From: Lepisosteus oculatus
Lineage: Eukaryota > Chordata > Actinopteri > Semionotiformes > Lepisosteidae
Direction: 5' to 3'
Length of the DNA: 64,000 nucleotides
Assembly (NCBI RefSeq): GCF_040954835.1
Contig: NC_090714.1
Span: forward strand, 4,018,501 to 4,082,500
Shown here piece by piece: positions 4,900-28,877 of the stretch. Made by a program: the position numbers and the translations under genes. Every line of letters starts with the position of its first letter. Position 1 is the stretch's first letter. Below the pieces are notes generated by a model, which was not told the DNA's origin, did no database searches, and saw nothing but the letters and a program-made list of their open reading frames with translations.

Positions 4900-5980
4900 A
4901 ATACTGGCATTCCAAACATAGCACCGTTTTCCAGTAGAACACTCTTTTTTTCTCGCAATTAGTACAACCATGTCTGCAATAGCACAAGCTACTCGGCTGT
5001 GCAGAACAATTCATTTTTACTATCTAGTTACAGTGTCATGATTGTTGGGGGGTTTGATTTTGAATACATCCCCCACTGTATACAGCACTTTATTCTCCTT
5101 TACCATGAGTAGGAAGTTTGCAAACTGGGATAACAGTGCTTTTATGAATGAACAAATAAACCCATCAACACGAGAAGAGAAGTGTTCAATAATGAACGGT
5201 GTAGAGCCAGTAGAACTAGTCGGTGATAGTGGCATTGCTCTGAATCTGACCAGCTCACCAATACAGTATGTACATTTCATAGATATGTTGAAGCAACAGC
5301 CTGGGTGCACCAGCGCAGACCGCGCTGGACGTACAGTAGGTTTAGTTTCAACCCCTTCAAGAGACCCACCACTTTCGCTAGTGCTGTGCCGGCTGGTGCT
5401 GCTTTCGTTTCCCAGATATAGCGCCGTCATTTTTTTTTTTCGGGTGGTCACGTGACTTTGGCCGCTAGTGACCCCGTCCGGGCGCCCCGAGCACTCTGGG
5501 TAAGATTGTCTGCGATTGGCTCTGCCCGGGAGGGCGCCGGCTGATTTCGCTCTTAGTTTCTCAATCTGTCCGTCTTAAATATGCAAAGCAAGGGATGTTT
5601 AAAGATAAGACCCGTCTTCCGATCTACGTGTTTAAAAATACTAGAAACTTCCTGTATTATAAGTGCTCATTTAAGCAAAGCCTATTCGGAAACGTGAAAT
5701 GGCATCAGGAAGTCGTTATTTAAGGGACATTATTATTATTAAGTTGACCTGCTGTAGATAGTTCATAGCACATCTGCGGAACAACATTGGAAACTCTTAT
5801 GTCTCACACACGCAGACCTCGGAAATATTTGAAAATATATATTTTTTATTTTCAAGAAAACAATTGAACATGTATCTTTTTCAAAAACCGCCATTTACCC
5901 ATGTCTTAGTATTGGAGTAAAGTTGATGAAGTAAACTCTATTGAAACGGTAATTGAACATTACGATTACAATTTTTTGCA
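4900..5980. other. Gene-free stretch with a CpG-rich core
   Basis: 5280-5560 is CpG-rich and holds CACGTG-containing and inverted CCAAT (GATTGG) motifs near 5450 and 5515, so it could be a promoter. I cannot tie it to a transcript. No convincing exon or protein is visible on either strand. The rest is A+T-rich and featureless. Confidence 0.35.
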
Positions 5981-6995
5981 ATTCAATTGAATTAATAACA
6001 AAGTATTCATCCCCAGGGAGTCACATAATGAATGGTAAAAGATTAGATATTAGCGTCAATCTTACTCCAGAAACAGAATTTAAGTTTTGATCAAGCAGTA
6101 AGAATTCTAATGTTAGTCTGCTACTCAATCTTGCCTGTGATTACTCCACGTCACTCATTGACAGTGGTTGCCCAGCTCTTTTCACTGTATATCCTGTGTA
6201 TACAGTGCATAACACTATATAGAACTTTGATAACTTTTTAAATTCATCTAAATGAAGTTGCATCTCTGTCTCAGAGATGACAATTATGAGTTAATATAAA
6301 GCTCCTAAATACCTGTCGCACGCTGTTTCCACTAGTACATAGTCATAGACACCCTTTTGTACCACAAGCACTCTTTGCACTTGACTACAGTAACTTTAAT
6401 ATCTTATAGAATATTCATTATTAATTAATTAAATATTAATTATGCTCCATTGATTGCAAAACTAGTTATTATATCCTCATCGCTATTCTGTTTTCTGTGC
6501 ATACAGCAGTTCACATTCTATTTACATGCATCGCTTTTGATTTTTACATCTTGAATCTGAGGGATTAAACTTTTTGTGGATCCTTGTGAAACGCCCGTGG
6601 GAATAAATCATTTCGTGACACCTACTTATATAAAGGAACTAAAGGGATACTCTGTCCAGACACAAGCCGGGGTATAAAACACTTAGATTAATTTTATTCG
6701 TTCATGTAATTTTATTTAAAAAAAAGTTGTCTTGAGAATCACTTCAAACATTTTAACCTCTTTCATACATGACATACTACCTCGCCGAACTCTATTACAA
6801 ATTTGGAAACTTTATTTTTTACTGTGATGTCACGAAAAAATAATGTCATGTCCAGTCACAAAAAAGGCTAGAAAAGATCTTTACAGAGGCGTTTCCGTAG
6901 CTTTATTGTTTGAAATGAGAGTAAACAGGCGAACCGCCTCGTCTCGGGACTGTGACTTGGCTTTAGTCTGAATAAGAGATGTACATGGCCGGTAT

Positions 6996-7395
6996 TCTGC
7001 GTGGCCGGCCTGGTGGCTCCGCGGGCTGAACCATCGGACACTTCTAAAGTTCAGAGAGCAGATCGACTCCCGGAGAGTCGTGTGAGTTGAAGTCGAGCCC
7101 CGAGCCTCCCCGTCAGTCTGAGACCTAATTCCCGGTCTGAGACCTAATCCCCGGGTGAAGCTCTCATGCTGTCGGGGTGAGTTTGTAGAAGGGGCTGTTC
7201 TCTACCACGCCGGCCGTTTTGGGGGGCTCCATTTTCGGGGCCTTCCAAAACAGGGCAAATGGGGGGTTTAAGTCCTTTATAAATGCATAGATCGGAATTC
7301 AATTCGAAAAAGCAGCCCCTTATACCACTGTGACACCTGCAGGATAGGTGTGGCACTAGCAGTGAAAGAGAGGTGCAGTCCTAACTAGGAGCGAC
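6996..7395. mobile_element. tRNA-like SINE block
   Basis: On the plus strand at about 7006-7085 the run CCTGGTGGCTCCGCGGGCTG resembles a pol III A box, and CAGATCGACTCCCGG about 50 bp on resembles a B box. On the minus strand at about 7355-7270 a second pair appears, CACAGTGGTATAAGGGGCTG and GAATTGAATTCCGATC. Together they look like two tRNA-derived elements placed tail to tail. The block recurs nearly unchanged at 24378-24775. The boxes are imperfect and neither half folds obviously into a full tRNA, so these are not called tRNA genes. Confidence 0.45.
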
Positions 7396-7656
7396 AGGGG
7401 TCTCTCTCCAGCACATTTCTCTTGATTCGACCAGCTGGCCGCAAGCTAAACGAGTCCGGCGAACAGTTTTGTAGGGGAATGTCACTGAATTGGGTTCTCT
7501 GGAAACCCTTAGCCGTTATATGCTTTATTTGTGATTTGGTGAGTTCAAGTTTCTATTTATCTTCAGTAACGTCAGCCCTTGTATCCGAGTGTACAGCTGT
7601 CAATCATGAGCCGAGCCCGCCCCCAGAGTGACCTTCCTCAGCGGACACGCCCCGTC

Positions 7657-7692
7657 CACCTGTTCCACAGGTGCGCCCGGCAAGATGGCGGC
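7657..7692 (+). promoter_or_regulatory. Promoter core: paired E-boxes and YY1-type site
   Basis: CACCTG and CAGGTG form a 17-bp palindrome (7657-7673). It is followed directly by AAGATGGCGGC (7682-7692), the form of YY1 site usually found at transcription starts. GC-rich sequence surrounds both. The ATG inside the YY1 site opens a frame of only nine codons before a stop, so it probably does not start a real protein. The arrangement is repeated exactly in copy 2. Confidence 0.6.
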
Positions 7693-9930
7693 GGGGAGAG
7701 TTTCTGCGGCGTGAGGTGCGTTTGCGTTTGATTTCTAATTTTCTTATTTTAAATGCAAAAACTCAAATTTGACTTTGAGGAAAGTGAGACAAAAATATTT
7801 TGTTGTTGCAACGTTTGTTAACTGCATTTGTTCCTGTTGAATTTGTGTTTTAGGACGCCGAAATGATTGTCCTGTCTGTTTGAGCGTGCTCTCGAAGTTT
7901 TAGAAGTCTGCATTCAGCGTTCTTATACTACCTTTCATGTAAGTATGTTTTTATAAGATAAGATCTGGTTCTTTTAACGAAAAAAGGCTGGAGTTAACTT
8001 TCAAACATTTGATTCTAAAGTTAGTAGCTGTGAAATCTCCGCTTGTCGGATTCGGGCTGTAATAACGGTTTCCGCTCCAAAATAATAAAATATTGTAAAG
8101 GTTTAATTTAATCATTCGTATGTTTTTATTTCTCCAGGTGAGAAAAACATGTCAAGAACGAACCTCCAGTTATGAAAGTGTTTTTCCAAGGTAAGTTATA
8201 TTTCTCCCTTGCACTATACTGTTTGAATTTGTGCAACTCGACGAGGCAACACGTATTTCCCGACGTTTTAACGCCAGAGCGGGTTTATACTAACTATATA
8301 GTATAATATATATTATAATATATATTTTATTCATCTGTTGAATTCATTGGGTAAAGATGGATAACAACTTATTTGCACGATGGTTTTCAATGCGCGGAGT
8401 TAAATCGAATATGATAAACGCTATGAGTGGTGCTTGATTTAAATGTAAGAAGTAGAATTTCACAAATGGAACTTTTGTTAATTGCATTTCTTCGTTTAAT
8501 TTGTGTTTTAGGGCGCCGAAATGAGTGTTCTGTTTGAGCGTGCTCTCGAAGTTTCAGAAGTCTGCATTCAGCGTTCTTGTACTGCCTTTCATGTAAGTAT
8601 GTTTTTAAAGACATGGTATATCTAGCTCTGTTTCCTTTAACGAAAAAAGCTGTAATTTATCTTCAGTCATTTGCTGTATAAAGTTAGTAACTGTGTATCT
8701 AACTGATAGTATCTGCTTTTCCTAATTGGGTTATATTTTCGCTTTCCGTTCCGAAATTCCAAAACTTTTGCCAAGATTAAATGTACTAATTCGTATGTTT
8801 TCTTATTTCTCCAGGTGACAAAGGGATTTCAAAAACCGGCCTCCAGTTAGAAAGTTTTTTTTTTCCGAGGTAAGTTTTATCCTTGTCTTTTGCTATACTG
8901 TTTATATTTGTGTATTAAAGACGACTCGTATTAAACAGCTTTTTAGCACCAGAACGGTTTTATACTAACGTTATCACTTCTTTTCGTTTACTTGTGCTTT
9001 TGCTGAATACAAATAGGAAACACAAAAGCGCTGGTTCTTTTTTATGGATTCTTTTATTCATAATAGGCTGAACCTACTTTCTAAATATTGGAGTAGTGGG
9101 ACTGGGATGTATCTGTGATTTCTCATGCTGTTACCTATTGGTTTCTTGTTGAATTTGACCGTGTTTGCATGGTTCTTAATTTAGGCAGCTTATTTGTAAA
9201 GTGAATAGACTTCAGAACTTCAAGTTAATCGATTCTGCAAGTCCGATATCTTGTTAACTTGATATCTTTTCTTTTGCCTACAGGTCTGCGGTTCCTGCTG
9301 CTCTGCGCTCCTAAGATCTCTTTTCCGATCCACTCCAGCAACTCATCGTGCGTTGGCAAGTTTTCTCGACAATGTGTGCTTTTCCTTGAACTTTATTTTG
9401 ATACCCGTGGCTTGATCTGTAATGTCCCGATTCAGTGCTGTATTTGTTACCAGTGGCTTGATCTGTAGTGTACCCTTTGTATACCGATTTATGTTACTGT
9501 TAACCTGCATGTTTCCTGTTGACTGCTGCCATTGTATGTGCTGCGGCTCCTGGTTCTCGGCGCTCCGACTATCTCCGGCAATTAATTCTTGACTGTGTGC
9601 TTTTCCTTGAATTTGTTTTTTATATCGGTGGCTTGATCTGTAGTGTACCCTTTGTATACCGATTTATGTTACTGTTAACCTGCATGTTTCCTGTTGACTG
9701 ATGTTATTGTATGTGCTGCGGCTCCTGGTTCTCTGCGCTCCGACGATCTCCAGCAATTTTTTCTTGACAATGTGTGCTTTTCTTGCATTTTATTTTTGTT
9801 ACCAGTGGCTTGATCTGTAATGTCCCGATTCAGTGCTGTATTTTATTCTTGACCTGCATGTTTTCTGTTGACTGCTGCTAATGTATGTGCTGTGAATTTT
9901 GCAATAAAAATTCTCATTTCATTGTCTGCA
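7676..9930 (+). ncRNA. Spliced non-coding transcription unit, plus strand, copy 1
   Basis: Inferred exons: 1, about 7676-7715; 2a, 7854-7938; 3a, 8138-8190; 2b, 8512-8592; 3b, 8815-8869; last, 9284-about 9930. Internal exons are flanked by strong sites: TGTGTTTTAG before and CAT/GTAAGTATG after exon 2, TTTCTCCAG before and GTAAGTT after exon 3, TTTGCCTACAG before the last. Exons 2b-3b and their intron repeat 2a-3a. The last exon contains a unit of about 180 bp repeated about three times (visible from GCTCCTGGTTCT at 9541 and 9718) and ends with AATAAA at 9903. Every ATG in the joined exons meets a stop quickly. I therefore call it a lncRNA-like gene; function unknown. No C/D or H/ACA snoRNA boxes were seen in the introns. 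A dead protein gene is possible, but splice sites are conserved between the two locus copies. Confidence 0.6.
9903..9908 (+). terminator. Polyadenylation signal, plus unit copy 1
   Basis: AATAAA after GAATTTTGC, with T/G-rich sequence (ATTTCATTGTCTGCATTGTC) 10-35 bases downstream, as expected for a cleavage site at about 9925. It is conserved in copy 2. Confidence 0.65.
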
Positions 9931-10620
9931 TTGTCCTGTATTTTCGAAGGTGCGAAGGGTTGTCTTGCGCGTGCGCCACGCACCGCAAGGCGACAACCCA
10001 TCGCACTAACCTGGAAAAGTGCGAGGACGCCCGCCTTTTTAGATAGTCTGGGGGGGAATAGGGTCCCTAGGAGGGAGCGTGGGTCTAGCCCTGGGGGGAG
10101 GAGAAGGGAGGATAGCTCTAGCCAAGCCCCCTCACTCCCAGCAGGCTGGAGATGGCCTCGGCCCGAGAGAGAGGAGGCACCCAGGGCGGACTCAGCCCAT
10201 CAGTCACAGTTGCAACTGACAGCTTTCTAAGTCCACACCCCAGGAGACCTGCCTCTCTGCAGGGACCAAAGCCACCACCAACCTGCCATCCTCTCCTGCC
10301 GGGAGCGAGTGGGCCTGGCTAGAGCTGCAGTCAATCAGCCAGCCCCCGCCTACCCCTCTCCAATGAGGGGGGGTGGGCGAGGCTCGGCTTGATTGCTACC
10401 ACACCCCGAGAGAAACCCCAGATACTAAGTTTTTTGGCGGGAAAATCTGGACACGCTTAAAAAGGGGGTAGCCTTTGACCTTTTCAAGTCAAAAAGCGAT
10501 AGGGCGTCCCCTTGCGGCCACAAACTGTAAGCAAAATCTCTCCGCCAAAAAACTCACCAACACCGGGGTTTTTCAGGGCCAAGGGGGTACAGAACTCTGC
10601 ACAAAAAAATGAAAGAACAA
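9930..10620. other. Conserved GC-rich interspace between convergent 3' ends, copy 1
   Basis: Between the two predicted poly(A) sites lies GC-rich sequence that is about 98% identical to 26190-26885. It holds CCAAT-type motifs (TCCAATGAGG near 10358; GTCAATCAG near 10331), a consensus E2F site TTTTGGCGGGAAAA (10432-10445) and a perfect 13-bp inverted repeat (10428-10440 with 10542-10554). The frame starting near 9868 is open for 120 codons, but it is interrupted relative to copy 2 by a 14-bp length difference, so it is not a conserved protein. Confidence 0.6.
9950..10006 (+). other. Long hairpin just 3' of the polyadenylation site
   Basis: The left arm reads GTGCGA, A, GGGTTGTC, TTGCG, C, GTGCG. 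After a CCA loop the right arm pairs with every block in reverse: CGCAC, CGCAA, GACAACCC, TCGCAC. That is 24 base pairs interrupted by one A/A mismatch and two small bulges. The position is about 25-80 bases after the predicted cleavage site. The matching place in copy 2 has lost several pairs. Confidence 0.6.
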
Positions 10621-12260
10621 CATCAAGGTTCAATCAACCATTTATTGAGCGAAAATGGCATACAAAGCATTACAATAGTCGGACGCATAGGCGTCGAAGT
10701 GAAAATGAACATGCATTTCAATTACAAAGTGTCAAAGCACGGCTACATTAACGCTAAACACTGTTACAAGTCAACAGAGTAAGAAAACATTTGCAAGCTA
10801 CTGCATGTTAAAACGGAAACATACAGCACGTTACTGTTTCTCCGAGGCTTCTGTCGAGACAGAGACCGGAATGAAGACTGGAACTTTGTTGCAATTCCTG
10901 TAAAAAAACAGAAAACAGTATTAACTTTCGGTTAAAAACAGGATCTCGAAATTATCCTAGCTAGTTCAAAAGATACAGTAATAAAGCGATTAGCCTGGTG
11001 CAACAGAGAATGTTCGTGTTCAACAAGGTATAGAAGCAGTTACATTTGAAGTGTGAAGACCGAAACACAATACAGCTGTCGATTAGAAATATCATTTCCA
11101 TTTTGATTAGCATATTCTTTTTCTGCAACAACGTATTTAACACACAAATAACCAATCCATATATTTAGAGGTTCCGTTATCTTAATTGTTGTGATGCAAT
11201 TTGGAAGCTAAAAATGAATCTGTTTCTAATGAATCTGTATTATGCCAATCACAGAAGCTTAAGTGATCGCAGTTTCAGCAGAAAATGTTTTCTATAAAAA
11301 GCAGGCCTACAATGTTGTCGGGTCAAACCCATTTCTGCCCTGGAGAAATCTAGTATCGCCTAGTTTGAGTCTTCTTTTGACAAAGTACATCACTTTTCCA
11401 ACAACATCAGTACACAGTGTACTTCAATACGATACGTGTAAACGAATAAAAAGGTTTATACTTACACAGATAATTCAAGCAGCTGTGCCAAGCGTGTCCT
11501 GCCCAAAGATACCAAACTGGAAACACAAGAACACAAGTATTTAGATCATTGAAAGATACTTTAAACTACGTTTTCTTAGTTGAAAACGATGTTTTCATCA
11601 GAGCAGATAGCGCACAATATATATGATATAAGACAGATGTAAAGAAATTAATAAAATGTTTATACTTACGTTTATTCTTCCATTAAGTGCGAGTCATGTC
11701 CAGCCCAAAGACACTAAACTGAAAACCCCCATTGAAAACAACCATTGAAATTAAAAATCATTAGCTGCAAAGCTAATATTACCGAGCGAATATAAGAACA
11801 TAATCTCTAGACCCACTCTGAAAAATAATGAAAATAATGGCTGTTTGTTTGGATAAATGCACACGCGTGGTTTTATGAACAAAGTTCACCAAGTTTTTGA
11901 TAAAGATTAAAATACGGATAAGCGACGTTTTCATTCTGCTATAACAGAGCTTTTCTTCGACGTAAAAGGAATAAACACGTTGTATGTGACAACAAGTTCC
12001 TTTTTAAAAATAAGTGAGGCGTTGGAAACTAAAAAATGTAAAAATGCCGGTAAAATGCTATTTAGCTCCCAAAGAAAACTCGTATATTACCCCTTTCATC
12101 TGCTACGTTAAGACAACATAATTACACGAGTTAAATTTAATATACATTCAAATAAAGGAAAATAAGAAATAATCATAAAAGACGCGGAACAAACGCACTC
12201 AGCTCCCTTCTCTCCCGCAGAACCTGGCGCACAGGTGCGCGGGGCGTGGCCTGCGAGAGA
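10620..12260 (-). ncRNA. Spliced non-coding transcription unit, minus strand, copy 1
   Basis: Read from right to left: CpG-rich start near 12260 and exon 1 to about 12199 (donor GTGCGT); exon 2, 11718-11670; exon 3, 11516-11466; last exon, 10897-about 10620. Exons 2 and 3 both begin TTTRGTRTCTTTGGGC after a CAG acceptor and end at identical GTAAGTATAAAC donors, so they look like an exon duplication. The last exon follows TTTTTTTACAG and ends with AATAAA (10646-10641 on this strand). No usable open frame was found. It converges on the plus unit of the same copy. Its promoter shares GCCCCG and CACCTGT motifs with the plus unit's promoter. Confidence 0.55.
10641..10646 (-). terminator. Polyadenylation signal, minus unit copy 1
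   Basis: AATAAA on the minus strand within GCTCAATAAATGGTTG, about 250 bases into the last exon. It is identical in copy 2 (26911-26916). Confidence 0.6.
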
Positions 12261-12300
12261 TGTCATGCAGGTGGGCGTGGTTACAGACTGACGGTTCCGG
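12200..12300 (-). promoter_or_regulatory. CpG-rich promoter of the minus unit, copy 1
   Basis: GC-rich sequence with GGGGCGTGGC and GGGCGTGG (Sp/KLF-like CACCC boxes) and CAGGTGCGC. It closely matches 28520-28625 in copy 2, while the A+T-rich intron beside it is far more diverged. Confidence 0.5.
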
Positions 12301-12759
12301 TTGCTTTTTTTCTGACTCCACCTGGAAACTTGTTAAAGAAATCGTGCCTGTTTACAGAAGCCCCCGTGAGTTACAAGTTTCAAAATCGTTTTTTGTCCCC
12401 GTAGACTACTGAGACACTTACTGTTCTATAACCTGATCTACCTAAACTCTGCAACAAGAAGTCAGATTACTCAAAAGTAAAGAGGCTGTTGGTTTAAACA
12501 AAATGGCTGGTTTGCCTGTGCCACTCTCCCACAACTCTTTGTGTAAAGAACTTATAAATACACTTCCCCATGACATCCTTTCACGTTTCACATGGTTCAT
12601 GTCAAAGTAGTCCACACTGTATTACTGCAACTTATTTTCTCAACTGGTTAACTGCAGTAGCTACTTAACTCATTAGGATGATTTTCAACACTAGTTTACT
12701 GGACTGAAGTACATACAGTATTACATTCTACTAAATTAAAATTTCTCAACCTCAGTGCA

Positions 12760-13110
12760 ACAAAAGAGGAGGTGGAAGAACATTTGTAAGAACCCATAGT
12801 GACCCCAGAGACCAGGAGGAGCTGGAGACGATGGCTTCACTCGCTAAACCAGACAGACCCACCAGTGCTTTTGAAGAGTTGGAACCTACCTGGCAGGAGA
12901 TGAACAATTTCCTAAGAAGGTCTAGAGCAAGATCAGCGCCACAGGCAAATGGTGTCAAGGACAAGACTCCCAAGTACTGCGAGAGGCTCAGGCTCAAGCA
13001 GCAGGGAGGAAGAACTCAGTCAAGGAAAGCTGGCTGATTGCAAAGAGGTGTGTGAGGCCATGAGGGTAGTGGCTGCCACTATGGACATCTTAGGCTCAGA
13101 GTCTACAGTT
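12760..13110 (+). mobile_element. Degenerate LINE reverse-transcriptase fragment
   Basis: The plus strand reads TSAFEELEPTWQEMNNFLRR, then SRARSAPQANGVKDKTPKYC, then ERLRLK. This resembles the start of a non-LTR retrotransposon RT domain, which normally continues with a KLW...W.KGKV.D.W block. Here the continuation appears only in another frame (GKLADCKEVCE), so there is at least one frameshift, plus stops. It is a dead fragment of a different LINE family from the one at 3.3 kb. Confidence 0.6.
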
Positions 13111-13780
13111 CGCTGATGTCTCTGTCTTCTCTGATCTCCTCTGAGATCAAGCCCTAGGTCCCTCACATCGCTGAGTTCTTCACTCATGGTGTCCTGAGCT
13201 CAATGAGCTTCACCTCCAGCTCTCACCCTCTGGCTAGTCCTTGTCAGGGAGAAGCAGCGGAACGCCCTCGACTCGATCAATCCAGTTTGACCAGAGCTTC
13301 TCTATCGCCTTCTTTGCCTTACTGGCAGGCCGACTCAGCAACGACCGAGGCTGCTACTCCTCCACACCTTCCTGCACCTCAATGACACTTCTCAGTCTCT
13401 CCAGGAGCCTCCCTGCTCCTCGCCACCCCTCCAGGAGCCTCCTTCTCCCCCCTGTAGCCACTGGTCCTCTCATGACCAGCCCTCGGGCTTCCAGGTCCTC
13501 CTCCAGCCCCTGACATCATCTCCTGACACCTCCGGGCCGGGTCTCACACAAACCAGAGTCTCCAGAGTCTCCAGAGTCTCACTCTCACACTCAGACTCAG
13601 CTCATCACACCCAGTCTCCAGCTCCTCACTGTCGGGCTGAGCCTAGACACACTCATGTTAGAACCACACAGCCCCTCAGTGCCTCACTCTCGTGTCCTAG
13701 GCTGTGCACACACAGCTTCCAGTGGACCTTTCCTGTGCCCAGTCACCACTGCGAACTATCTCCACCCTCACTGGAGCTTT
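13110..13780. other. Gene-free stretch, C/T-rich
   Basis: Pyrimidine-rich sequence with short internal repeats (TCCAGGAGCCTCC twice near 13400-13440; CCAGAGTCT repeated near 13555-13575). Open frames here are low-complexity Ser/Pro/Leu translations with no recognisable domain. Confidence 0.4.
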
Positions 13781-13789
13781 AGCTCCCTC

Positions 13790-14024
13790 TCACTCTCATT
13801 CCTGGCCAAGTAGCCTGGTCAGTACCTGGATGGGAGACCTCCTGGGAAAAGCCAAGGTTGCTGCTGGAGGAGGTGTTAGTGAGGCCAGCAGGGGGCGCTC
13901 ACCCTGCGGTCCATGTGGGTTCTAATGCCCCAGTATAGTGACGGGGACACTATACTGTTAACACGCGCCGCCCTTCGGATGAGACATAAAACCGAGGTCC
14001 TGACTCTCTGTGGTCATTAAAAAT
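13790..14024 (+). mobile_element. 5S rRNA-derived SINE, 5' portion
   Basis: Begins with sequence matching the 3' part of 5S rRNA (AGCCTGGTCAGTACCTGGAT, then GGGAGACCTCCTGGGAA), which carries the internal control region. The body follows: GTGGGTTCTAATGCCCCAGT, then CACTATACTGT, then TTCGGATGAGACATAAAACC, breaking off after CTGTGGTCATTAAAA. The rest of the element is absent here but is visible at 44.6 kb and 63.6 kb. Confidence 0.72.
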
Positions 14025-14039
14025 GTGGTAAGTAATAAG

Positions 14040-17000
14040 GGTAGAGGAGGCACATGAGCGAAAACTCAGGCAATATCAGTCCCTCATCCCTGAATGTGTC
14101 AGAGAAATGGATGGAGAGCATGCAGTGTCCCAGCTGAAGCTGGCTGTAGAGGTTTTGTGGGACAGTCACTTTGGAGAGGCCTGGGGCTGCTTGGTGTCAA
14201 ACGAGCAGCAAAGAGAAAGTTAGTGGCCAAGGTCTGTGAGCAAGTAAGTGCAGTATCCATCTGGATACTGGCTCTGGGTGACAAGGAGTGAGCTTTGGCT
14301 GTAAGGAGACAGACCTGAGTTGTTATAAGTGGATCTAACAACACATGTGCTATAAACAATCCAGTGAATCTAGGAGAAAATGAGGGTTATATATCTTCAC
14401 ACCTCTGTGTTAGTTTATATAAATGCTCCTCTGGTAGGATTTATACTAACAAGACATGTCTTGCGAGTTTCTTGCCCTTCTGAGAGGGGATATGTGACCA
14501 TTTTGGAGGAAGATGTTCATGGTCCATCTCCCATTCCTGAAGTGTTCAAACTGGTAGAAGCAGTAAGAGCAGTTCATTCATAATGGGTTGTGCCCGAAAC
14601 AATTTTTTTTAGGGGAAGAAAGGATTTACAGAAATCAAGGGATGAATCTGAAAACTGATGGGGTTCATGAGGAGAAGCCAAAACCTTAAGCTAACACAAA
14701 GAAAATGTTATTTCAGACTGGTGATTCAAAAAGTCACCCTGCTAGTTTAAGGTTAAGTGCCTGCTTACCAAACCACCAGACCACTTCTCAGTGCAAAGGG
14801 AAGGAAGCTGTTCAATGGGAAAAAACTGTTAAAATCATCAGCCAATACAGGGCATCAAAACACTGATTGCATAATCTATGTCTCAATATTATCCCCCAAT
14901 CTCCTTAGCTACCTCAAATTTCAACACTCTCAACAATAATTTTTATTTTTTAAATACAGGAGACTCTATTAGCAAAACAGGGTTTTGTCATGGGTCTGCA
15001 GCACCGACTTTTGCCTTTGCGATTCCTCAGCTGAGAACACTATTCCAATCATAGCAGACATGGACAAGTGTTCTGACGGAGGAAGAGGAAGAGGAAGAAT
15101 ACTGGGTAGGGATGCAGAAGTGGTTTTAGAGTTCATCACAAATCTGTATATGTTTAAGGAATATATATAAACCATTACGAAATCATTATCTTTTTCTACT
15201 AAACGATTTCTGAAACAGATTGAGGTATGGTGAAATGTTTAGGAACTAATAACGTTCAAGGAAAATTGATTAAAGCAATGTTGCACTGTCCCTAGAAGGC
15301 TTCTGTAGGCACCTTGCATTTTGGCTCAAGCCCAGGTTGTGGTGTTTCTCTGAGCCAAGGTGGCTTCTGAGCAGACAGGGATCTGGAAGCAGGTGTGCAC
15401 TATCGAGCTGGACACACCCGGGCATTCCACATGAGGATTTTAGGGCTTTGGGGATAGGTTCCCATGGAATTAGCCCAGCCCCTGTAATTAACGAAGAGGC
15501 TTATAAAAGTGAAGTTTGGGAGGAAAGTATTTATGTTGTGCTTTGAATTGAAGAGGAGCATGAGAATTATTCAGTGTGAGTTTTGCCCATGCTCCTGTGG
15601 CTTTGGAGTAGTGGGATTTGTTTGGTGAGAAGAGCAAGATGTCACTGGTTTGGAGCATTCAACCAGAACTGTTCCTGAAGCCAGTTGATCCTCTGTGGGA
15701 CTTGACAAGCTGAGCTGTGGTTTGGAAATACAGTAAGTGATGCTGTCCAGTAGGGGGAGCCACATATGCTAGGATGTGTGTGCCAGCTCCTGGGTCAGCT
15801 ATGTTGGGGTGAGTTAGAGCTGTGGAGGAAATTGGCATTGCAACACTGACCAGGAGATGTTCAGGGTATCGTATGCAAAACCAAGCTGAGCTTGTCCACA
15901 TTCGTCTTTCTGTATCTTCTAGATGAGGGTTAGCTGGCTGCACTGTTGTACCGCCTCTGGAGGCAGTAGGTCCTTCAGCACAGGACTGACACTCCGCACA
16001 ATTGAGTCTCCCTGGGGATGTACATTGCATTGATCTTTCCTGTATGTCTTGGCAGCATGCTCTTATGGAATCCCTTCCCTAGTCACAAAAACCCCATTCC
16101 AAGGGACCGGGGACAAGGACAGCTGAATTGGGAAGGGCCCAGTATGCTACTGACTTTGGGATGCAGAAACCCAGCTTGACCCTGCTGCACAGCCAGTGGG
16201 GAGAGATCCCTCCACTGAAATTCCAGGTAGGGCACTGCGGTACTTAGCTCAGCTGTTGAAATGACTGGAAAATGATGCTACTCTGGATAAAAGCATCAGC
16301 CAAACAGTCCAGTCCCTTTTTGCTAAAGGCTGCTTCCTCACAGCAGTATCTCCACTGGACAGTGATGGAAACCGACCTTCAGTGATGGTAATGTTCTGGA
16401 TGAGTTTGAGCATGCTCTCCATGCTTGGGAGTCCAATGTGTGACTGGCCTGGGTATGAGTGTCCAGTGTGTGGTGTCAGGACTTGGTCATGTAATCTTTC
16501 CTCCCCCCCCCACCCCACACTTCTGAAAGAGCCCCTTTTAATCACCATGGGGGAAGAATGGAGACGTGTGCTGTGATGCTTTTTATTCCTTCCTGGGAAG
16601 ATTGGCGCAACTGAAGCTCTCCAAGAGTAATGGGAGATCAGCACTGCAGCTTTGATGTGGAACCAAGATCTGTGGTTTGTATGGGGCTCCTCTGACCTGT
16701 CATGTTACAAGACAGGCTCAAGGACATCTGTGTCATGTCTGTACAATAAAGTCTTGTGTGTGTACAGCTGTTAACTCTGTCCTCTGTGGTGCCACTGTAT
16801 AGACCCTGATGCTTTATTGGACTGAAGATCAGTACCTTCAGGGGTAGCTTTCATTGGGCTACAATGCAACGTGGAGGGGAACTGCTGGATCTTCTCATGT
16901 ACTGGTCAGTCTTAAAGGGACAAATGGGACCTGGCACTAACCCAGGAACTTCAGTTGACACACCTGTAATGCAAGTCTCTGCCTAATTAGTCTGTGCAAC

Positions 17001-18009: not shown

Positions 18010-18354
18010 GAAGAGCTGAGGAGTTCTTATTGGCAAAGTTTAGAATCCAGAGCCACGCTCTGTCAACTGGTGGCTGGAGTACCTCTATCTCCTATTGGTC
18101 AGCTGTTCATATACTGAGGAGCTGTTTCTATTGCAAGTTTTATTATTGGTCAATAAGAGGAGGCATCTCTGAGACTTTAGATCTCATTAAGATGGCGAAA
18201 CTGAAGTACTGCAACATAAAACACCGCAATAATGATCGAAGTGGAACAAGACAGAGCAGCGCTCGTACCTGCAGGCCATATAAATCAAACTCAGAGATGA
18301 CAGAGAGTAGAAAGTGAAGCCAAGCTGCACACAAACTACAGCTGACTGGATATG
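18010..18354 (+). promoter_or_regulatory. CCAAT/TATA promoter with exon-like segment
   Basis: Three inverted CCAAT boxes (ATTGG at 18029, 18094 and 18145) precede a TATA-like CATATAAATC (TATAAAT at 18279-18285). A strong donor TATG/GTGAGT follows at 18354/18355, so a first exon of about 45 bases starting near 18310 is plausible. An alternative is a 41-codon frame beginning at AAGATGGCG (18192) and ending before 18320. Immediately downstream lies LINE debris, so the rest of any gene was displaced or lies beyond it. I do not recognise the gene. Confidence 0.4.
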
Positions 18355-19110: not shown

Positions 19111-19119
19111 ACCTATTTT

Positions 19120-21810: not shown

Positions 21811-21818
21811 CCCTTCTA

Positions 21819-22304: not shown

Positions 22305-22421
22305 TAACACGACCGGCTGTTATCCAGACGCTCCGGCGGCCCGCAGTCTGGAGCTCCAGGAGAGGAAACGTTTCAGTCAGGACAGCCGGCCGGAGAGACG
22401 GTGGCCACCCGGGACCGCGAG
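22305..22421 (+). other. CpG-rich, exon-like segment with donor
   Basis: An abrupt rise in CpG content begins at about 22305 and ends at GACCGCGAG/GTGAGTGCGG, a near-perfect splice donor at 22421/22422. CpG-containing sequence continues, more weakly, to about 22860. It could be the first exon of a plus-strand gene reaching into copy 2 of the duplication. A second donor-like site (ATACAG/GTAGCC) lies near 22945. No protein is recognised. Confidence 0.33.
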
Positions 22422-24377
22422 GTGAGTGCGGCTGGTCTCCGGGATCAACTGCTGCTGCTTGAACAGTGTAGAAAAAGCGTTTCTAATACATGTAGGCGCA
22501 AGTTCTGGCCTCTCGCCAAAGCCAATACAAAGGTAGCACCTGTTTTTTAAAATAACCTATTTATTCGCTGGGAGGTGTTCAACGGAGCGAAACCATATTT
22601 CCCCCACCCTCAGATTAAGTGAGCGCAGCTGTGGGTTTCTTCATCACATTCTATTGCTTTACCATACTGAGAAAAGTCCATTGGTCCTGGGATTTCTCCG
22701 ACTACGAACACAAAGGTCTCTTTAAACCCGAAAGCAAGAGGCTCTGCAAGCAGAGTGCAGACCGGTTGGAGTCTCACCTTCGAACTGACCGCTCATCTGT
22801 CCGATTTTACGCCACACGGGAGCTCTGCGCTTCGGCGGTCAGGCTGGTGTAGAGGACAGGAAGTCTGGGAAGCTGAAGAGGAGAAACTAGTGAATAAGAC
22901 ACCTGCTAAAACACCAACAGACCCGAGAAAGCATTAAAAATACAGGTAGCCATTTTAAATAGTAACAATAACCCGTTCTATTTCGCCTGTTGAAAAAGAT
23001 ACGAAAGTTACTGGTTCAGTTTGAATTCAACGTCTCTTTCAAAGCCAGTTACTGTCCGCCTTCTTAATTATTCTGATGCCTTCTCTCGTTTCGTTTTGAA
23101 CTGTTCCCATCCACATATGAAGCAAATTTGACCGACATTCTGCTTACCAAATAAAGCAAAACATCCCGGGAGTATTTTCCTGTCGCTGCAAAGCCGCCAT
23201 TTAAGGACAAAAACGCAATACTGCTGCCAGAACAAGTTTTAAAGGACACTAATTGAAGGCGGATAAAGATTGATCACACCTAACTGTGGACTGTTAATTA
23301 ATTAGACATGTCTATAACACGGACTGGATCCTGGAGTTGACATGGATCCCTCAGTCTTTCCGACACAAGTAACTGGAGTCAATCCCGTTCCATACTTTTA
23401 ACTGAACCGCTGATGAAATAACCTTATCGAAACTTTAATTGAGGATTTACGATTTGTGTTCAGTTTAATTCAAAATACTATATCCATCCCCATCTATCAT
23501 CAATAGTAAAAGGTTTCAAGTTAGCGACACCTTTGCGCCAGAAACAGTGTTTCAGAATTCCGTCTTTTGGCTTTGGGTCAAGCAGTAAGAATTATACTGT
23601 AAGTGTTTGACAGTCAGTCTCACCTGTGATTACTGTACTGTGATTACTGTACTGTACGTCACTCACTGACCGTGGTTCCCTTTTCACTGTAGAACCCGTG
23701 TATACAGTGTAGAACACGATATAGACTTTTAATGACTTTTTAAAGTAATCAAAATGAATTTGCATCTTTTCGAGACACTTACACTATCAATTAATATAAA
23801 ACTCTGTTTCCACTACTTCATTGCCAGCGGTCTGATATTCATAAACAACACTTTCACCACCTGCACTCTGTGCATTTGACTGCATTTTGACTACAATAAC
23901 TTTCACATATTATGGTATATGAAGTAATAGCGTCTCTAATAGTAATAATAAGGAGCGAAGTGATGCTTCATTGATTGCAAACTTATTTCATTACATCCTT
24001 CTCACTATTCTGTTTTCTATGCACACACCAGTTCACTTTCTATTTACATCCATTGCTTTTGATTTTTAAATCTTTCATCTTTAAACTTCTATGTTGAACC
24101 TTGTCAAACGCCCATGGAAATATAAATATACTATGTCGTGACACCTGCTGTTTGTAAGGAACTATAGGGATATTCTGCCCGGACACCAGCTGGAGTACAA
24201 AACATATAGACCGATTTAATCGTCCATGTAGTTTTTTTTTTTCATTTTTATTTGTCTTTAGATTCATAGAATACATTTTGTTTAAAAAATAATGCTTGAT
24301 GAGAGAGCAAACAGGTGGAACCGCCTCGTCTCGGGACTGTGACTTGGCTTTAGTCTGAATAAGAGATGTACATGGCC

Positions 24378-24775
24378 GGTATTCTGCGTGGCCGGCCTGG
24401 TGGCTCCGCGGGCTGAACCATCTGACACTTCTAAAGTTTAGAGAGCAGATCGACTCTCGGAGAGTCTTGTGAGTTGAAGTCGAGCCCCGAGCCTCCCCGT
24501 CAGTCTGAGACCTAATCCCCGGTCTGAGACCTGATCCCCGGGTGAAGCTCTCATGCTGTCGGGGTGAGTTTGTAAAGGGAGCTGTTCTCTACCACGCCGG
24601 CCGTTTTGGGGGGCTCCATTTTCGGGGCCTTCCAAAACAGGGCAAATGGGGGGTTTAAGTCCTTTATAAATGCATAGATCGGAATTCAATTCAAAAAAGC
24701 AGCCCCTTATACCACTGAGACACCTGCAGGACAGGTGTGGCACTAGCAGTGAAAGAGAGGTGCAGTCCTAACTAG
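24378..24775. mobile_element. tRNA-like SINE block, copy 2
   Basis: Counterpart of 6996-7395 with only scattered substitutions (for example CCATCTGACAC for CCATCGGACAC, and GACTCTCGG for GACTCCCGG in the B-box-like stretch). The substitution next to the B-box core slightly weakens its match. Confidence 0.45.
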
Positions 24776-25013
24776 GAGCGACAGGGGTCTCTCTCCAGCA
24801 CATTTCTCTTGATTCGACCAGCTGGCCGCAAGCTAAACGAGTCCGGCAAGCAGTTTTGTAGGAGAACGGCAGTGAATTGGGTTGTCTGAAAATCCTCAGC
24901 CGTTAAATACTAAATTTATGATTTGGTGAGTTCAAGTTTCTATTTATCTTCAGCTGTCGTTCATGAACCGAGCCCGCCCCCAGAGTGTCCTTCCTCAGCG
25001 GACACGCCCCGTC

Positions 25014-25049
25014 CACCTGTTCCACAGGTGCGCCCGGCAAGATGGCGGC
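25014..25049 (+). promoter_or_regulatory. Promoter core of the plus unit, copy 2
   Basis: The CACCTG/CAGGTG palindrome (25014-25030) and AAGATGGCGGC (25039-25049) have the same spacing and sequence as in copy 1, although the sequence upstream differs by a deletion of several dozen bases. Confidence 0.6.
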
Positions 25050-26185
25050 GGGGAGAGTTTCTGCGGCGTGAGGTGCGTTTGCGTTTGATTTCTAATTTTC
25101 TTCTTTTAAATGCAAAAACTCAAATTTGAGTTTGAGGAAAGTTAGACGAAACTGTATTGTTGTTGCAACTTTTGTTAACTGCATTTGTTTCTGTTGAATT
25201 TGTGTTTTAGGACGCCGAAATGAGTGTCCTGTCTGTTTGAGCGTGCTCTCGAAGTTATAAAAGTCTCCATTCAGCGTTCTTATACTACCTTTCATGTAAG
25301 TATGTTTTTAAAGACATGGTATCTCTAGCTCTGTTTCCTTTAACGAAAAAAGCTGTAATTTATCTTCAGTCACTTGCTGTATAAAGTTAGTAACTGTGTA
25401 TCTAACTGTTAGTATCTCAGCTTTGCGGAATCGGGTTATATCGCTTTCCGTTCCGAAATGATCAACTTTTGCCAAGATTAAATTTACCAATTCGTATGTT
25501 TTCTTATTTCTCCAGGTGACGAAGGGATTTCAAAAACCGGCCTCCAGTTAGAAAGTGTTTTTTTTCCGAGGTAAGTTTTATTCTTATCTTTTGCCATACT
25601 GTTTATATTTGTGTATTAAAGACGACTCGTATTTCACAGCTTTTTAACACCAGAACGGTTTTATTTTAACGTTATCACTTCTTTTCGTTTAGTTGTGCTC
25701 TTGCTGAATACAAATAGGAAACACTAAATCGCTGGTTCATTTTATGGGTTATTTTATTCCTAATAGGCTGAACTAATTTCTAAATATTAGAGTAGTGTGA
25801 CTGGGATGTCTGTGATTTCTCATGCTGTTACATGTTTGTATGTTTCTTAATTCAGGCAGCTTATTAAAAAAGTTAAGACTTCATTACTTCAACTTTAATC
25901 GATTTTACAAATCCGATATTTTGTTAACTTGATCCTTTTTCTTTTGCCTTCAGTTTTGCGGCTCCGACGATCTCCTTTCCAATCCACTCCAGCAACTCGA
26001 CGACCGTTGGCCAAGTTCTTCTCGACAATGTGTGCTTTTCTTGCATTTTATTTTTGCTACCAGTGGCTTGATCTGTAATGTCCCGTTCAGTGCTGTATTT
26101 TATTCTTGATCTGCATGTTTTCTGTTGACTGCTGCTATTGTATGTGTTGTGAATTTTGCAATAAAAACTCTCATTTCATTGTCTG
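25033..26185 (+). ncRNA. Spliced non-coding transcription unit, plus strand, copy 2
   Basis: Inferred exons: 1, about 25033-25072; 2, 25211-25295; 3, 25516-25570; last, 25954-about 26185, with AATAAA at 26160-26165. All splice sites match those of copy 1, and exon 2 is the same length as exon 2a (85). The intron after exon 2 resembles the 2b-3b intron of copy 1 more than the 2a-3a intron, which suggests that the extra pair in copy 1 is the 2a-3a one. The joined exons contain no useful open frame. Same interpretation and uncertainty as for copy 1. Confidence 0.6.
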
Positions 26186-26189
26186 CATT

Positions 26190-26885
26190 GTCCTGTATTT
26201 TCGAAGGTGTGAAGTGTTGTCTTGCAGCGTGCGCCACGCACCCCAAGGCGACAACCCATCGCACTGTCCTGGAAAAGTGCGAGGACGCCCGCCTTTTTAG
26301 ATAGTCTGGGGGGGAATAGGGTCCCTAGGAGGGAGCGTGGGTCTAGCCCTGGGGGGAGGAGAAGGGAGGATAGCTCTAGCCAAGCCCCCTCACTCCCAGC
26401 AGGAGGGGAAGGCAGGCTGGAGATGGCCTCGGCCCGAGAGAGAGGAGGCACCCAGGGCGGACTCAGCCTATCAGTCACAGTTGCAACTGACCGCTTTCTA
26501 AGTCCACACCCCAGGAGACCTGCCTCTCTGCAGGGACCAAAGCCACCACCAACCTGCCATCCTCTCCTGCCGGGAGCGAGTGGGCCTGGCTAGAGCTGCG
26601 GTCAATCAGCCAGCCCCCGCCTACCCCTCTCCAATGAGGGGGGGTGGGCGAGGCTCGGCTTGATTGCTACCACACCCCGAGAGAAACCCCAGATACTAAG
26701 TTTTTTGGCGGGAAAATCTGGACACGCTTAAAAAGGGGATAGCCTTTGACCTTTTCAAGTCAAAAAGCGATAGGGGGTCCCCTTGCGGCCACAAACTGTA
26801 AGCAAAATCTCTCCGCCAAAAAACTCACCAACACCGGGGTTTTTCAGGGCCAAAGGGGTACAAAACTCTGCACAAGAAATCAAAG
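26190..26885. other. Conserved GC-rich interspace, copy 2
   Basis: Nearly identical to 9930-10620. It keeps the E2F site (26703-26716) and the 13-bp inverted repeat (26699-26711 with 26813-26825). It has about 14 extra bases near 26404 and a degraded version of the 3' hairpin (26207-26264). Confidence 0.6.
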
Positions 26886-26889
26886 AACA

Positions 26890-28590
26890 AAATCAAGGTT
26901 CAATCAACCATTTATTGAGCGAAAATGGCATACAAAACAAAGCATTACAATACGTCGGATGCACAGGCTTCAAAGTGAAAATGAACAAGCATTTCAATTA
27001 CAAAGTGTCAAAGCACGGCTACATTAATGCTAAATACTGTTACAAGTCAACAGAGTAAGAAAACATTTGCAAACAACTACAAGAAAAAACACAGAAACAT
27101 ACAGCACGTTACTGTTTCTCCGAGTTATTAGTCGAGGCAGCGACCGGAATGAAGACTGGAACTTCGTTGCATTTCCTGCAAAAAAACAGAAATCAGTATT
27201 AACTTTCGGTTACAAACAATCTCGAAATGATCCCAGATAGTTAGACCGAGCTTCTGTATTGACTGACACATTTAGAAAATAAAGCAATTACCCTGGTGCA
27301 ACATAAAATGTTCCTATCCATGAAGTACTTATATTTAAAGTCTACATTTGAAGTGTGAATACGGGAGAGACAATAGTTAGTGTATCGATTAGAAACTACC
27401 ACATTCGAAAGTGTTTCTTTCACTATTTCCTTTTCAGCATATTCTTTTTCTGAAACAGTTCAGTTAACACATAAGCAATTATGTTGACACACCTGAAGAA
27501 GGCTCCACGGCCGAAACGTTGTGTTCTCTTTCTTCTTTTTTTCAGCATGGAATAAACCTATTACTTGTTCCTTTGCAGCCTACGCATGCTGACGCAGCTA
27601 CCCACCTGAGCAATTAATTAATATCTTTATAGGTTTCTATAAACAGCAGGCCTGCAGTGTTGTCGGGTCAAACCCATTTCTGCCGTGAAGAAATCTAGAA
27701 TCGCCTAGTTGAGTCTGCTTTTGACAAAGTACATCACTTTTCCAACAACAGCAGTATACAGTGTACTTCAACACGAATAAAAGGGTTTATACTTACACAG
27801 ATAATTCCAGCAGCTGAGCCAAGCGTGTCCTGCCCGAAGACACCAAACTGGAAACACAAGAACACAAGTATTTAAACGAGAACTTAAAGATAATTAAAAC
27901 CAAGGTTTTTAGCAGCAAACGACGTTTTCACTAGGGCCGATAGAGCAGAATATATTTCAAAAAGATGCGTGTAGAGAAATGAATAAAATGATTATACTTA
28001 CGTTTATACTTCCATGATTCAGTGCGACTCGTGTCCTGCCCGGACACTTAACTGAAAACACAAAAACAGCAGAATTTAGAATTTAACGACCACTGAAACT
28101 AAAAAAGTATTAGTTGCCAGATAATGTTTACTAGGAATATAAGAACATAATCACACAACATACTCTAGAAATGATTAAAAATCTTTAACGTTCTAGGTAG
28201 CCTATTTTCGGTTTTGGATAAATGCACAAGAGTTCACGAAAATTAAGATAAAGATACATACGTAAATTGACGTTTGCATTCTGCCAATACAGCAGTGGCT
28301 TTACTGCTACAACAGAGCTTTTCTTCGATGTAAAACGAATACACACGTCGTTTGTGTAACACAAGTGGCTTGAATTAAAAAATGCTATTTAGCTCCCAAC
28401 GAAAATACGTGTTTTACCCTTTTTGCGAGGTATAAAGTACATATTTACATTGGTTAAATTTATATCTACATTAAAATAAGGGAAAAATAAAAAAAGAATC
28501 ACAAAAGACGCGGAACAAACTCACTCAGCTCCGCTCTCTCCAGCAGAACCTGGCGCACAGGTGCGCGGGGCGTGGCCTGCGAGTGATGTC
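26890..28590 (-). ncRNA. Spliced non-coding transcription unit, minus strand, copy 2
   Basis: Right to left: start near 28590, exon 1 to 28525 (donor GTGAGTTTG, better than in copy 1); exon 2, 28051-28002; exon 3, 27847-27797; last exon, 27175-about 26890 with AATAAA at 26916-26911. Exons 2 and 3 again begin alike and end at GTAAGTATAA donors. A mobile-element insertion (27483-27606) lies in the intron before the last exon and leaves the splice sites intact. Confidence 0.55.
27483..27606 (+). mobile_element. Dispersed repeat with GAAGAAGGCTCCACGG core
   Basis: Contains CACCTGAAGAAGGCTCCACG, GCCGAAACGTTGTGTT, a pyrimidine run, CAGCATGGAATAAACC and GCAGCCTACGCATGCTGACG. It is absent from the same position in copy 1, so it inserted after the duplication. 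A reverse-complement copy lies at 31710-31820. I recognise it as a recurrent vertebrate repeat but cannot assign its family. Confidence 0.6.
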
Positions 28591-28877
28591 ATGCAAGTGG
28601 GCGTGGCTACAGACTGACGGTGCAGGTTGCTTTTTTTCTTGGGTCACCTAGAAACGTTTATGATTTTATTTACTTTTATTATTTTATCCTTAAAAAATCG
28701 TCATTTTCGCTTCGCAACTTGATACTTGATAACACTGCCAACATGAAGAGAGGTCCGTACAATTTCATTTCAAACCTATTGTGTTTCCATGAGAAATGAT
28801 ACAATACTGTTGGTAGTGTAGTGTATTGTATATTATTTTTTTTATTTTAATTCCAGTGTATGAGTATATTATACACA

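What the first reader, a model, noticed from the sequence alone, without database searches (positions are those of the whole stretch)
5980..28640. A duplicated locus with two convergent spliced non-coding genes per copy
Seen: two copies about 17 kb apart, each with a plus unit and a minus unit pointing at each other. In both copies the exons have canonical donors and acceptors, CpG-rich starts and AATAAA signals, all conserved while introns diverged. No joined reading frame survives. Inference: four lncRNA-like genes kept as a matched convergent pair after duplication. I know of no described system with this layout next to NUBP2/SPSB3.
Basis: partly seen in the sequence, partly recalled or inferred. 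Interest (0 to 1): 0.78.

Follow-up and report, generated by a model that had tools for sequence, protein, structure and literature searches.

The report
Chromosome-homogenised facing noncoding gene family
A fish genome, likely that of the spotted gar, carries about 64 to 80 copies (two of them here) of a unit in which two noncoding genes, predicted to be transcribed and spliced, face each other across an inverted-repeat DNA core; the cores are mostly more alike within a chromosome than between chromosomes, likely because neighbouring copies overwrite one another.

Summary
A promoter 30-mer of the unit occurs 80 times in the genome (49 on contig C19, the rest on C26, C27, C20, C21, C2) and a core 29-mer 64 times, with 0 control matches each. 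The genome is most likely spotted gar. In 30 C19 copies, 9 of 11 splice dinucleotides and both poly(A) signals are kept in at least 29 of 30, against 12 of 427 intronic control dinucleotides. No long reading frame was found, no Rfam match at gathering score, and no Pfam match in ten frames.

Between the two poly(A) signals lies a ~0.7 kb inverted-repeat core that folds far below shuffled sequence (z about -5 to -30) and holds TTTCCCGCCAAA, an E2F-type site, in 55 of 55 cores examined. Cores are homogenised: C19 within/between divergence 0.16, introns 0.78.

I read it as a constrained convergent lncRNA pair whose foldback core likely acts as a gene-conversion hotspot. Transcription, splicing and function are untested.

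The parts
6965..7455 (.). Copy A: conserved upstream block B1 (GC-rich, role unknown)
   Evidence: 0.87-0.96 mean identity in 60-bp windows over most of the block in 8 units, 0.69 in one window; divergence .062 within C19.126 to C26/C20
7630..7715 (+). Copy A plus unit: promoter and exon 1, donor GT at 7716; contains AAGATGGCGGC
   Evidence: least diverged part between chromosomes (.045); its 30-mer occurs 80 times in the genome
7854..7938 (+). Copy A plus unit exon 2
   Evidence: splice pattern; acceptor kept in 10 of 10 units
8138..8190 (+). Copy A plus unit exon 3
   Evidence: splice pattern
8512..8592 (+). Copy A plus unit exon 4 (repeat of exon 2)
   Evidence: acceptor 29/30, donor 30/30 copies; internal repeat
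8815..8869 (+). Copy A plus unit exon 5 (repeat of exon 3)
   Evidence: acceptor and donor 30/30
9284..9925 (+). Copy A plus unit last exon, AATAAA at 9903, with internal ~175-bp repeats
   Evidence: acceptor 30/30, AATAAA 30/30; repeats; 3' end inferred from the signal
9945..10620 (.). Copy A core between the two poly(A) signals: foldback (inner inverted repeat about 10114-10326)
   Evidence: fold z -10.2 (minus) / -6.4 (plus) against -2.4 to +2.4 in 9 other windows; -15.3 / -4.8 with 20 shuffles; inverted repeat; homogenised within C19
10430..10447 (-). Copy A block kept in all subfamilies, with E2F-type site TTTCCCGCCAAA (10433-10444, minus strand)
   Evidence: second longest run of columns agreeing in at least 53 of 55 cores; TTTSSCGCSAAA in 55 of 55 cores and, in the 64-kb window, only here and in copy B
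10539..10557 (-). Copy A partner block GTGAGTTTTTTGGCGGAGA, inverted to 10430-10447
   Evidence: longest such run, 19 nt; shuffled longest runs mean 7.3, 99.9th percentile 16
10620..10897 (-). Copy A minus unit last exon, AATAAA at 10646-10641
   Evidence: acceptor 30/30, AATAAA 29/30; 3' end inferred from the signal
11466..11516 (-). Copy A minus unit exon 3
   Evidence: acceptor 30/30, donor 29/30
11670..11718 (-). Copy A minus unit exon 2 (optional)
   Evidence: acceptor 19/30, donor 22/30
12199..12300 (-). Copy A minus unit promoter and exon 1, donor at 12198
   Evidence: donor 30/30; GC instead of GT in the C20 unit
5303..16915 (.). Stretch around copy A over which homology to other units was seen (at least; both limits are ends of fetched loci)
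   Evidence: L036 from 5303, L033 to 16915
24351..24852 (.). Copy B: block B1 (position by homology to copy A)
24987..25072 (+). Copy B plus unit promoter and exon 1
25211..25295 (+). Copy B plus unit exon 2
25516..25570 (+). Copy B plus unit exon 3
25954..26182 (+). Copy B plus unit last exon, AATAAA at 26160
26203..26890 (.). Copy B core (inverted repeat 26372-26597; E2F-type site 26704-26715, minus strand)
   Evidence: (locus L002)
26892..27175 (-). Copy B minus unit last exon, AATAAA at 26916-26911
27797..27847 (-). Copy B minus unit exon 3
28002..28051 (-). Copy B minus unit exon 2
28525..28625 (-). Copy B minus unit promoter and exon 1

Best explanation
Each unit holds two noncoding genes, predicted to be transcribed and spliced, that face each other across an inverted-repeat core, and this core likely acts as a gene-conversion hotspot that overwrites the 3' ends of neighbouring copies. 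Shown by sequence: 64 core and 80 promoter matches on up to six contigs; splice and poly(A) signals kept in nearly all copies examined; no long reading frame; a core that folds strongly on both strands; a TTTCCCGCCAAA site with a facing partner in all 55 cores examined; cores more alike within C19, C26 and C20 than between chromosomes; left and right arms of a unit with different histories. Inferred: both genes are read by RNA polymerase II, at least in the germ line; the foldback forms a DNA hairpin that is cut and repaired from nearby copies; the E2F-type site is bound and ties the locus to the cell cycle. What the RNAs do once made is not shown.
For: Genome-wide copies: 40 scored places each; pattern counts. 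Signals kept in 30 C19 copies. Signals across chromosomes: of 9 constitutive sites, 8 in 10 of 10 units and 1 in 9 of 10 (GC donor in the C20 unit); 9 of 9 in the lone C2 unit. Noncoding. Foldback: one inverted repeat of about 640-690 bp in 13 of 14 C26/C20 cores (not L056) and 570 bp in the C2 unit; fold z -16 to -30 in the four of these tested. Homogenisation: within-C19/between-chromosome divergence .16 in the core.39 last exons.49 B1.61 and .65 promoters.78 introns (6 C19 units against 1 C26 and 1 C20 unit). Mean core divergence .027 within C19 (34).027 within C26 (12).018 within C20 (2).049 within C27 (5), against .080 (C19-C27) to .180 (C19-C26) between chromosomes, leaving out the C19-like unit at C26:6.0 Mb. 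The core tree sorts by chromosome, 4 label changes against 18.8 shuffled, and by neighbourhood within C26 and C19. Mosaic arms: L001-L004 left .238, right .031; L004-L030 left .021, right .235. Strand-specific change in introns of both units, A>G .41 against T>C .32, p .019, and more T than A on the sense strand in each of 29 copies, as expected of germline transcription (recalled). E2F-type site; consensus TTTSSCGC from passages of PMC3905855. Palindrome hairpins cut by SbcCD/Mre11-type nucleases: passages of PMC6315862.
Against: No expression data. No match to the joined plus exon 1-exon 2 junction anywhere in the genome at up to 3 mismatches, so no trace of a spliced transcript there. Between chromosomes the core (.166) is no more conserved than the last exons (.170), so its closeness within C19 is homogenisation rather than special constraint. 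Marks of exchange are spread over the unit, not only at the core: neighbouring windows correlate up to .75, distant ones -.16 to .47. C27 is not one clade: L037 differs from the other four C27 cores by .086-.095. The second strand asymmetry in introns, C>T against G>A, is not significant (p .16). Low core divergence within a chromosome could come in part from selection or from recent duplication.
Confidence: 0.5

Rival explanations
1. The core is the working product: read-through of the minus unit (or of both) makes a long hairpin or double-stranded RNA that feeds small interfering RNAs or another double-stranded-RNA pathway, as at hairpin RNA loci.
For: Fold z -10.2 minus and -6.4 plus in copy A, 0 of 20 shuffles as good on either strand, -16 to -30 in C2, C26 and C20 cores. 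Changes in 40 cores favour G-U over A-C on the minus-strand structure, 24 against 11 events, p .041; on the plus-strand structure 14 against 24. In the core C>T exceeds G>A on the minus sense, 22 against 9. Six parallel changes in the two arms between C26 and C20. Inverted repeats and bidirectional transcription as double-stranded-RNA sources: passages of PMC10618873.
Against: Both genes carry poly(A) signals before the core. Covariation is weak: in 25 representative cores 2 double-compensatory pairs on the minus strand, and the plus strand has more (6). Three of the six parallel changes are adjacent and may be one event. Left arms of C26 and C20 are more alike (.91) than the two arms of one unit (.83-.87). 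The two longest kept blocks look like fixed sequence rather than fixed pairing.
Confidence: 0.2
2. The core is a DNA control element (E2F-type promoter, enhancer or replication element) and the two RNAs are by-products.
For: TTTSSCGCSAAA in 55 of 55 cores on five chromosomes; it occurs only twice in the 64-kb window, once per core; 61 exact copies of the 29-mer around it; longest kept blocks of the core.
Against: The same blocks are facing halves of one predicted helix, so pairing could explain them. The second block matches TTTSSCGC at 7 of 8 positions only. Splice-site constraint far from the core would need a separate reason. Binding is untested.
Confidence: 0.15
3. An old dispersed repeat or segmental duplication family without function, homogenised by ectopic gene conversion.
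For: Copies lie in both orientations over 16 Mb of C19 and on six contigs, with no protein family in ten frames; the limits of homology vary.
Against: Constraint follows exon, splice, poly(A) and promoter borders in many copies and on several chromosomes, against 12 of 427 control dinucleotides. Neighbouring C19 copies often lie 14.7-19.4 kb apart (9 of 35 gaps), as from an old tandem array.
Confidence: 0.15

Closest known systems
Hairpin RNA / endo-siRNA loci of Drosophila simulans (Nmy, Tmy) and related multicopy conflict families (PMC10618873, passages only)
   Same: Inverted repeats as RNA sources, multicopy families on particular chromosomes, gene conversion
   Different: Here the repeat lies between two predicted spliced genes with poly(A) signals; no target or small RNA is known; a vertebrate
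Palindromic ampliconic genes of the human Y (named in PMC10618873, passages only)
   Same: Inverted organisation with gene conversion keeping copies alike
   Different: Arms here are about 0.3 kb and 68% alike overall (82-88% in the outer 130 bp); homogenisation is seen between dispersed units, hardly between arms; chromosome status unknown
Tandem noncoding host-gene arrays such as SNORD115/116 (recalled)
   Same: Repeated units with noncoding exons and splice signals
   Different: No Rfam family at gathering score here; introns are the diverged part; two facing genes per unit
Convergent lncRNA pairs in vertebrates (recalled, general)
   Same: Two RNA genes facing each other with short noncoding exons
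   Different: Known to me as single loci, not as a family of dozens around a foldback core

Membership tests
lncRNA gene | Conserved promoter, canonical splice sites, poly(A) signal | tested here: met
   minus exon 2 fails (19/30, 22/30)
lncRNA gene | No conserved reading frame | tested here: met
   longest ATG frames 56, 29, 16, 15 aa; 0 Pfam families for 10 chosen open frames
lncRNA gene | Transcribed and spliced | not testable with these tools
   no RNA data; indirect for: intron strand asymmetry; against: no copy of one joined junction
Hairpin RNA / endo-siRNA locus | Long inverted repeat | tested here: met
   13 of 14 C26/C20 cores in one piece, C19 and C27 in parts
Hairpin RNA / endo-siRNA locus | Pairing kept by compensatory change | tested here: inconclusive
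   2 double changes minus, 6 plus; 6 parallel arm changes; G-U bias p .041
Hairpin RNA / endo-siRNA locus | Dicer-size small RNAs and a target | not testable with these tools
   no small-RNA data
snoRNA or microRNA host gene | Match to a known small RNA family | tested here: not met
   0 Rfam matches at gathering score in the window; 8 weak ones at E <= 5 in 5-30 kb
Transposable element | Shared ends, target-site duplication, own protein | tested here: inconclusive
   limits of homology vary among 8 fetched units, no protein family in ten frames; target-site duplications not looked for
E2F-controlled element | TTTSSCGC site kept in all members | tested here: met
   55 of 55 cores examined
E2F-controlled element | Bound by E2F | not testable with these tools
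   no binding data
Concerted-evolution (gene-conversion) family | Copies more alike within than between chromosomes, with mosaic histories | tested here: met
   C27 only in part (L037 stands apart)

The most novel reading that the evidence does not exclude
A self-renewing noncoding cassette: an E2F-timed foldback is cut in S phase or meiosis and repaired from neighbours, so a chromosome keeps its own version of the core and of the 3' ends of two facing lncRNAs, giving chromosome-specific hairpin RNA; on C19 this may be tied to the spotted gar's candidate sex chromosome, which the text I could read does not name.
Probability: 0.12. Interest if true: 0.88.

Novelty: new variant of a known kind. 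Interest (0 to 1): 0.66.

Why it matters
If real, this is a vertebrate family of dozens of paired noncoding genes with splice signals kept in the units examined on five chromosomes, in which gene structure, foldback DNA and concerted evolution can be told apart by region. It offers a direct test of whether a short inverted repeat drives gene conversion between dispersed genes, and of what a multicopy lncRNA pair does in a slowly evolving fish. Three narrow searches of the held library (listings only) showed no paper on such a gar family; that is weak evidence that it is unreported.

Tried and rejected
Known RNA family: none in Rfam at gathering score; the weak MIR1144 and SNORD88 hits (E 0.99 and 2.2) were taken as chance. 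tRNA: none in 5-30 kb (bacterial settings). Coding origin: rejected; ten frames were sent to Pfam out of 218 of at least 70 aa listed for 12.3-64 kb, none from copy A's units themselves. The first exons of the C2, C21 and C26 (L059) units have no stop, unlike those of copies A and B; in the C21 unit, the only one of these three where exon 2 was found, the joined frame meets a stop. Two-copy duplication: rejected. Ultraconservation of the core: first suspected from 30 C19 copies, dropped when the C26 and C20 units showed it diverges as much as the last exons. Co-evolving repeat arms: weak. Exchange only in the core: dropped, since correlations fall off everywhere. Sex-chromosome link: the VGP Phase I preprint (PMC13320880; [quoted passage not shown] supplements were not open to me. 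PMC12265721: a word search of its main text gave 0 for gar.

Rows dropped: L031-L034 from the core set because they repeat L003, L008, L010, L016; L016, identical to L015; exon 4/5 sites could not be compared because the number of exon cassettes varies, and the two minus exon 2 sites, lost in several units there, are not among the nine 'constitutive' sites. In one search three exon ends of copy B were one base off; one search repeats it with the right ends and gives the same lengths. Tree support is rough (the bootstrap had not settled). In one search two C19 places were set 3 kb from the promoter match; later gave their cores within 1 kb of that. Shuffle z-scores vary with the run: copy A minus -15.3 and plus -4.8 with 20 shuffles, -10.2 and -6.4 with 40.
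Full report
What was claimed and what is there. The window sits at 4.02-4.08 Mb of a 17.87-Mb contig, C19, in a 1.2-Gb genome. An open frame at 63 kb is identical, over the 80% of it that aligns, to mS34 of Lepisosteus oculatus, listed on a 17.87-Mb contig, so the genome is most likely spotted gar.

A family, not a duplication. The central 1.2 kb matched 40 scored places of 83 candidates, 34 on C19, 5 on C27 and 1 on C26. The upstream part matched 40 scored of 112 candidates, 35 on C19, 4 on C27, 1 on C26; all but two C19 places lie beside a core found. A query with a C27 core reached further copies on C26 and C20. Pattern counts over the whole genome then gave 80 places for a promoter 30-mer at up to 3 mismatches (49 C19, 18 C26, 8 C27, 3 C20, 1 C21, 1 C2; 44 exact) and 64 for a core 29-mer (36 C19, 18 C26, 7 C27, 2 C20, 1 C2; 61 exact), with 0 control matches each. 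At least eleven C19 units show two promoter matches 0.86-1.28 kb apart, so promoters outnumber cores. On C19, 31 of 36 copies lie in the first 6.4 Mb, 19 on one strand and 17 on the other, and 9 of 35 neighbour gaps are 14.7-19.4 kb. Homology reaches at least 5303 on the left and 16915 on the right in some units. This fits an old tandem array of 16-19 kb units that was later scattered (inferred).

Gene signals are kept. In 30 C19 copies, 9 of 11 splice dinucleotides are kept in at least 29 copies, against 12 of 427 control dinucleotides in the introns; the two exceptions are both sites of minus exon 2 (19 and 22 of 30). The plus AATAAA is kept in 30 and the minus one in 29 of 30. In ten units (six from C19, one from C27, two from C26, one from C20), of nine constitutive sites eight are kept in 10 of 10, and the minus exon 1 donor in 9 of 10, being GC in the C20 unit. 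The lone C2 unit keeps 9 of 9. The C21 unit has lost the upstream block and most of the last exon and core and looks decayed. Mean divergence among the 30 copies is .023 in the core.057-.074 in the end of the plus last exon, the minus last exon and the minus start.11-.16 in the other exons tested (.28 in minus exon 2).16-.24 in introns. The plus promoter with exon 1 is the least diverged part between chromosomes.045. There is no ATG frame beyond 56 aa in the joined models and no Pfam match in ten open frames chosen around both copies.

The core. In 13 of 14 C26 and C20 cores it is one inverted repeat of about 640-690 bp (not in L056), and in the C2 unit one of 570 bp, at about 68% identity between arms. 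The C19 and C27 cores looked at keep the inner repeat of about 225 bp (in copy A only its outer 32 bp pass the cut-off) and parts of the outer arms. It folds far better than shuffled sequence: in copy A z -10.2 (minus) and -6.4 (plus) with 40 shuffles, while nine other windows lie between -2.4 and +2.4 on both strands; -15.3 and -4.8 with 20 shuffles. Cores of C2, C26 (two) and C20 give -16 to -30, C27 L037 -10.6 and -15.1, copy B -6.6 and -15.8. In 55 cores on five chromosomes, with consensus identities .826-.94, the two longest runs of columns agreeing in at least 53 of 55 are 10539-10557 and 10430-10447, the two facing halves of one predicted helix; the third is the minus poly(A) signal. 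The second holds TTTCCCGCCAAA. The E2F consensus TTTSSCGC is taken from passages of PMC3905855. TTTSSCGCSAAA is found in 55 of 55 cores and only twice in the 64-kb window, once per core. Whether a protein binds there, or pairing alone explains the blocks, is open.

How the core evolves. Among six C19 units the core differs by .027, between them and one C26 and one C20 unit by .166, a ratio of .16. The ratio is .39 for last exons.49 for block B1.61 and .65 for the promoters and .78 for introns. Over all 55 cores, means are .027 within C19.027 within C26.018 within C20 and .049 within C27, against .080 (C19-C27) to .180 (C19-C26) between chromosomes; the single C19-like unit at C26:6.0 Mb differs from C19 by .047. 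The core tree sorts by chromosome: 12 C26 cores in one clade (100/100), 34 C19 cores together with that one C26 unit (99/99); 4 label changes against 18.8 in shuffles. C27 is the exception, L037 standing apart (.086-.095 from the other four). Within C26 the 11-13 Mb copies form a subclade, and the distal C19 copies fall outside the 0.7-6.3 Mb cluster (support rough). Arms of one unit have different histories, e.g. L001-L004 left .238, right .031, and window-to-window correlations fall off along the whole unit. So conversion or exchange touches all parts, and the core most. Between chromosomes the core is not more conserved than the last exons, which argues against reading its closeness within C19 as extreme constraint.

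How it most likely works. Shown: the anatomy above. Inferred: both genes are transcribed. In introns, A>G exceeds T>C on the sense strand in both units (.41 against .32 combined, p .019), and each of 29 copies is T-rich on its sense strand; C>T against G>A points the same way but is not significant (p .16). This is the mark expected from germline transcription (recalled). Inferred: the foldback makes a hairpin that is cut and repaired by recombination, as passages of PMC6315862 describe for palindromes in E. coli and hairpin ends in yeast, and the repair template is a nearby copy. Against: one joined exon junction has no match in the genome, no RNA data exist here, and the tools cannot see breaks.

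Rivals. A hairpin-RNA source is plausible from the fold, the G-U bias (24 against 11 events, p .041) and the minus-sense C>T excess in the core (22 against 9), but compensatory change is weak and not strand-specific (2 pairs minus, 6 plus). A DNA control element is plausible from the E2F-type site. An inert repeat family is disfavoured because constraint follows gene borders.

Setting. The window's other genes look like NUBP2, SPSB3, EME2 and MRPS34 (read by eye; MRPS34 confirmed; order as in human, recalled). [quoted passage not shown] a link to C19 is only a lead.

Noticed in passing
1-1845: Tandem repeat array with many overlapping self-matches at the left end of the window.
   Followed up: no
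12735-13034 +: 100-aa open frame with a WQEMNNFL..SRARSAP stretch, with relatives in L031 and L059; looks like an old LINE fragment (recalled); no Pfam match.
   Followed up: partly
13800-13869 +: Weak 5S rRNA match (23.4 bits, below gathering), followed by SINE-like sequence; perhaps a 5S-derived SINE (SINE recalled).
   Followed up: no
14150-16915: Right part of the unit shared with L033, L035 and L060, with a plus-strand AATAAA at 16745: perhaps a third gene of the ancestral unit.
   Followed up: partly
18080-18340: ATTGG boxes and an AAGATGGCG start-like motif between the two copies: possible further promoter (read).
   Followed up: no
L015/L016 (C19:12.83 Mb): Two cores 6.9 kb apart in opposite orientation with zero divergence over both flanks: a young palindrome or an assembly effect.
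   Followed up: no
C19, e.g. 2573571/2574620, 5472050/5473114, 6248837/6249901: At least eleven C19 units show two promoter matches 0.86-1.28 kb apart.
   Followed up: no
L061 (C2:48.20 Mb): A lone unit with signals kept and a foldback on a 78-Mb chromosome; possibly close to the ancestral locus.
   Followed up: partly
L036 (C26:6.00 Mb): A C19-type unit on C26, 90% identical to copy A over 5.7 kb including introns: a later move between chromosomes.
   Followed up: partly
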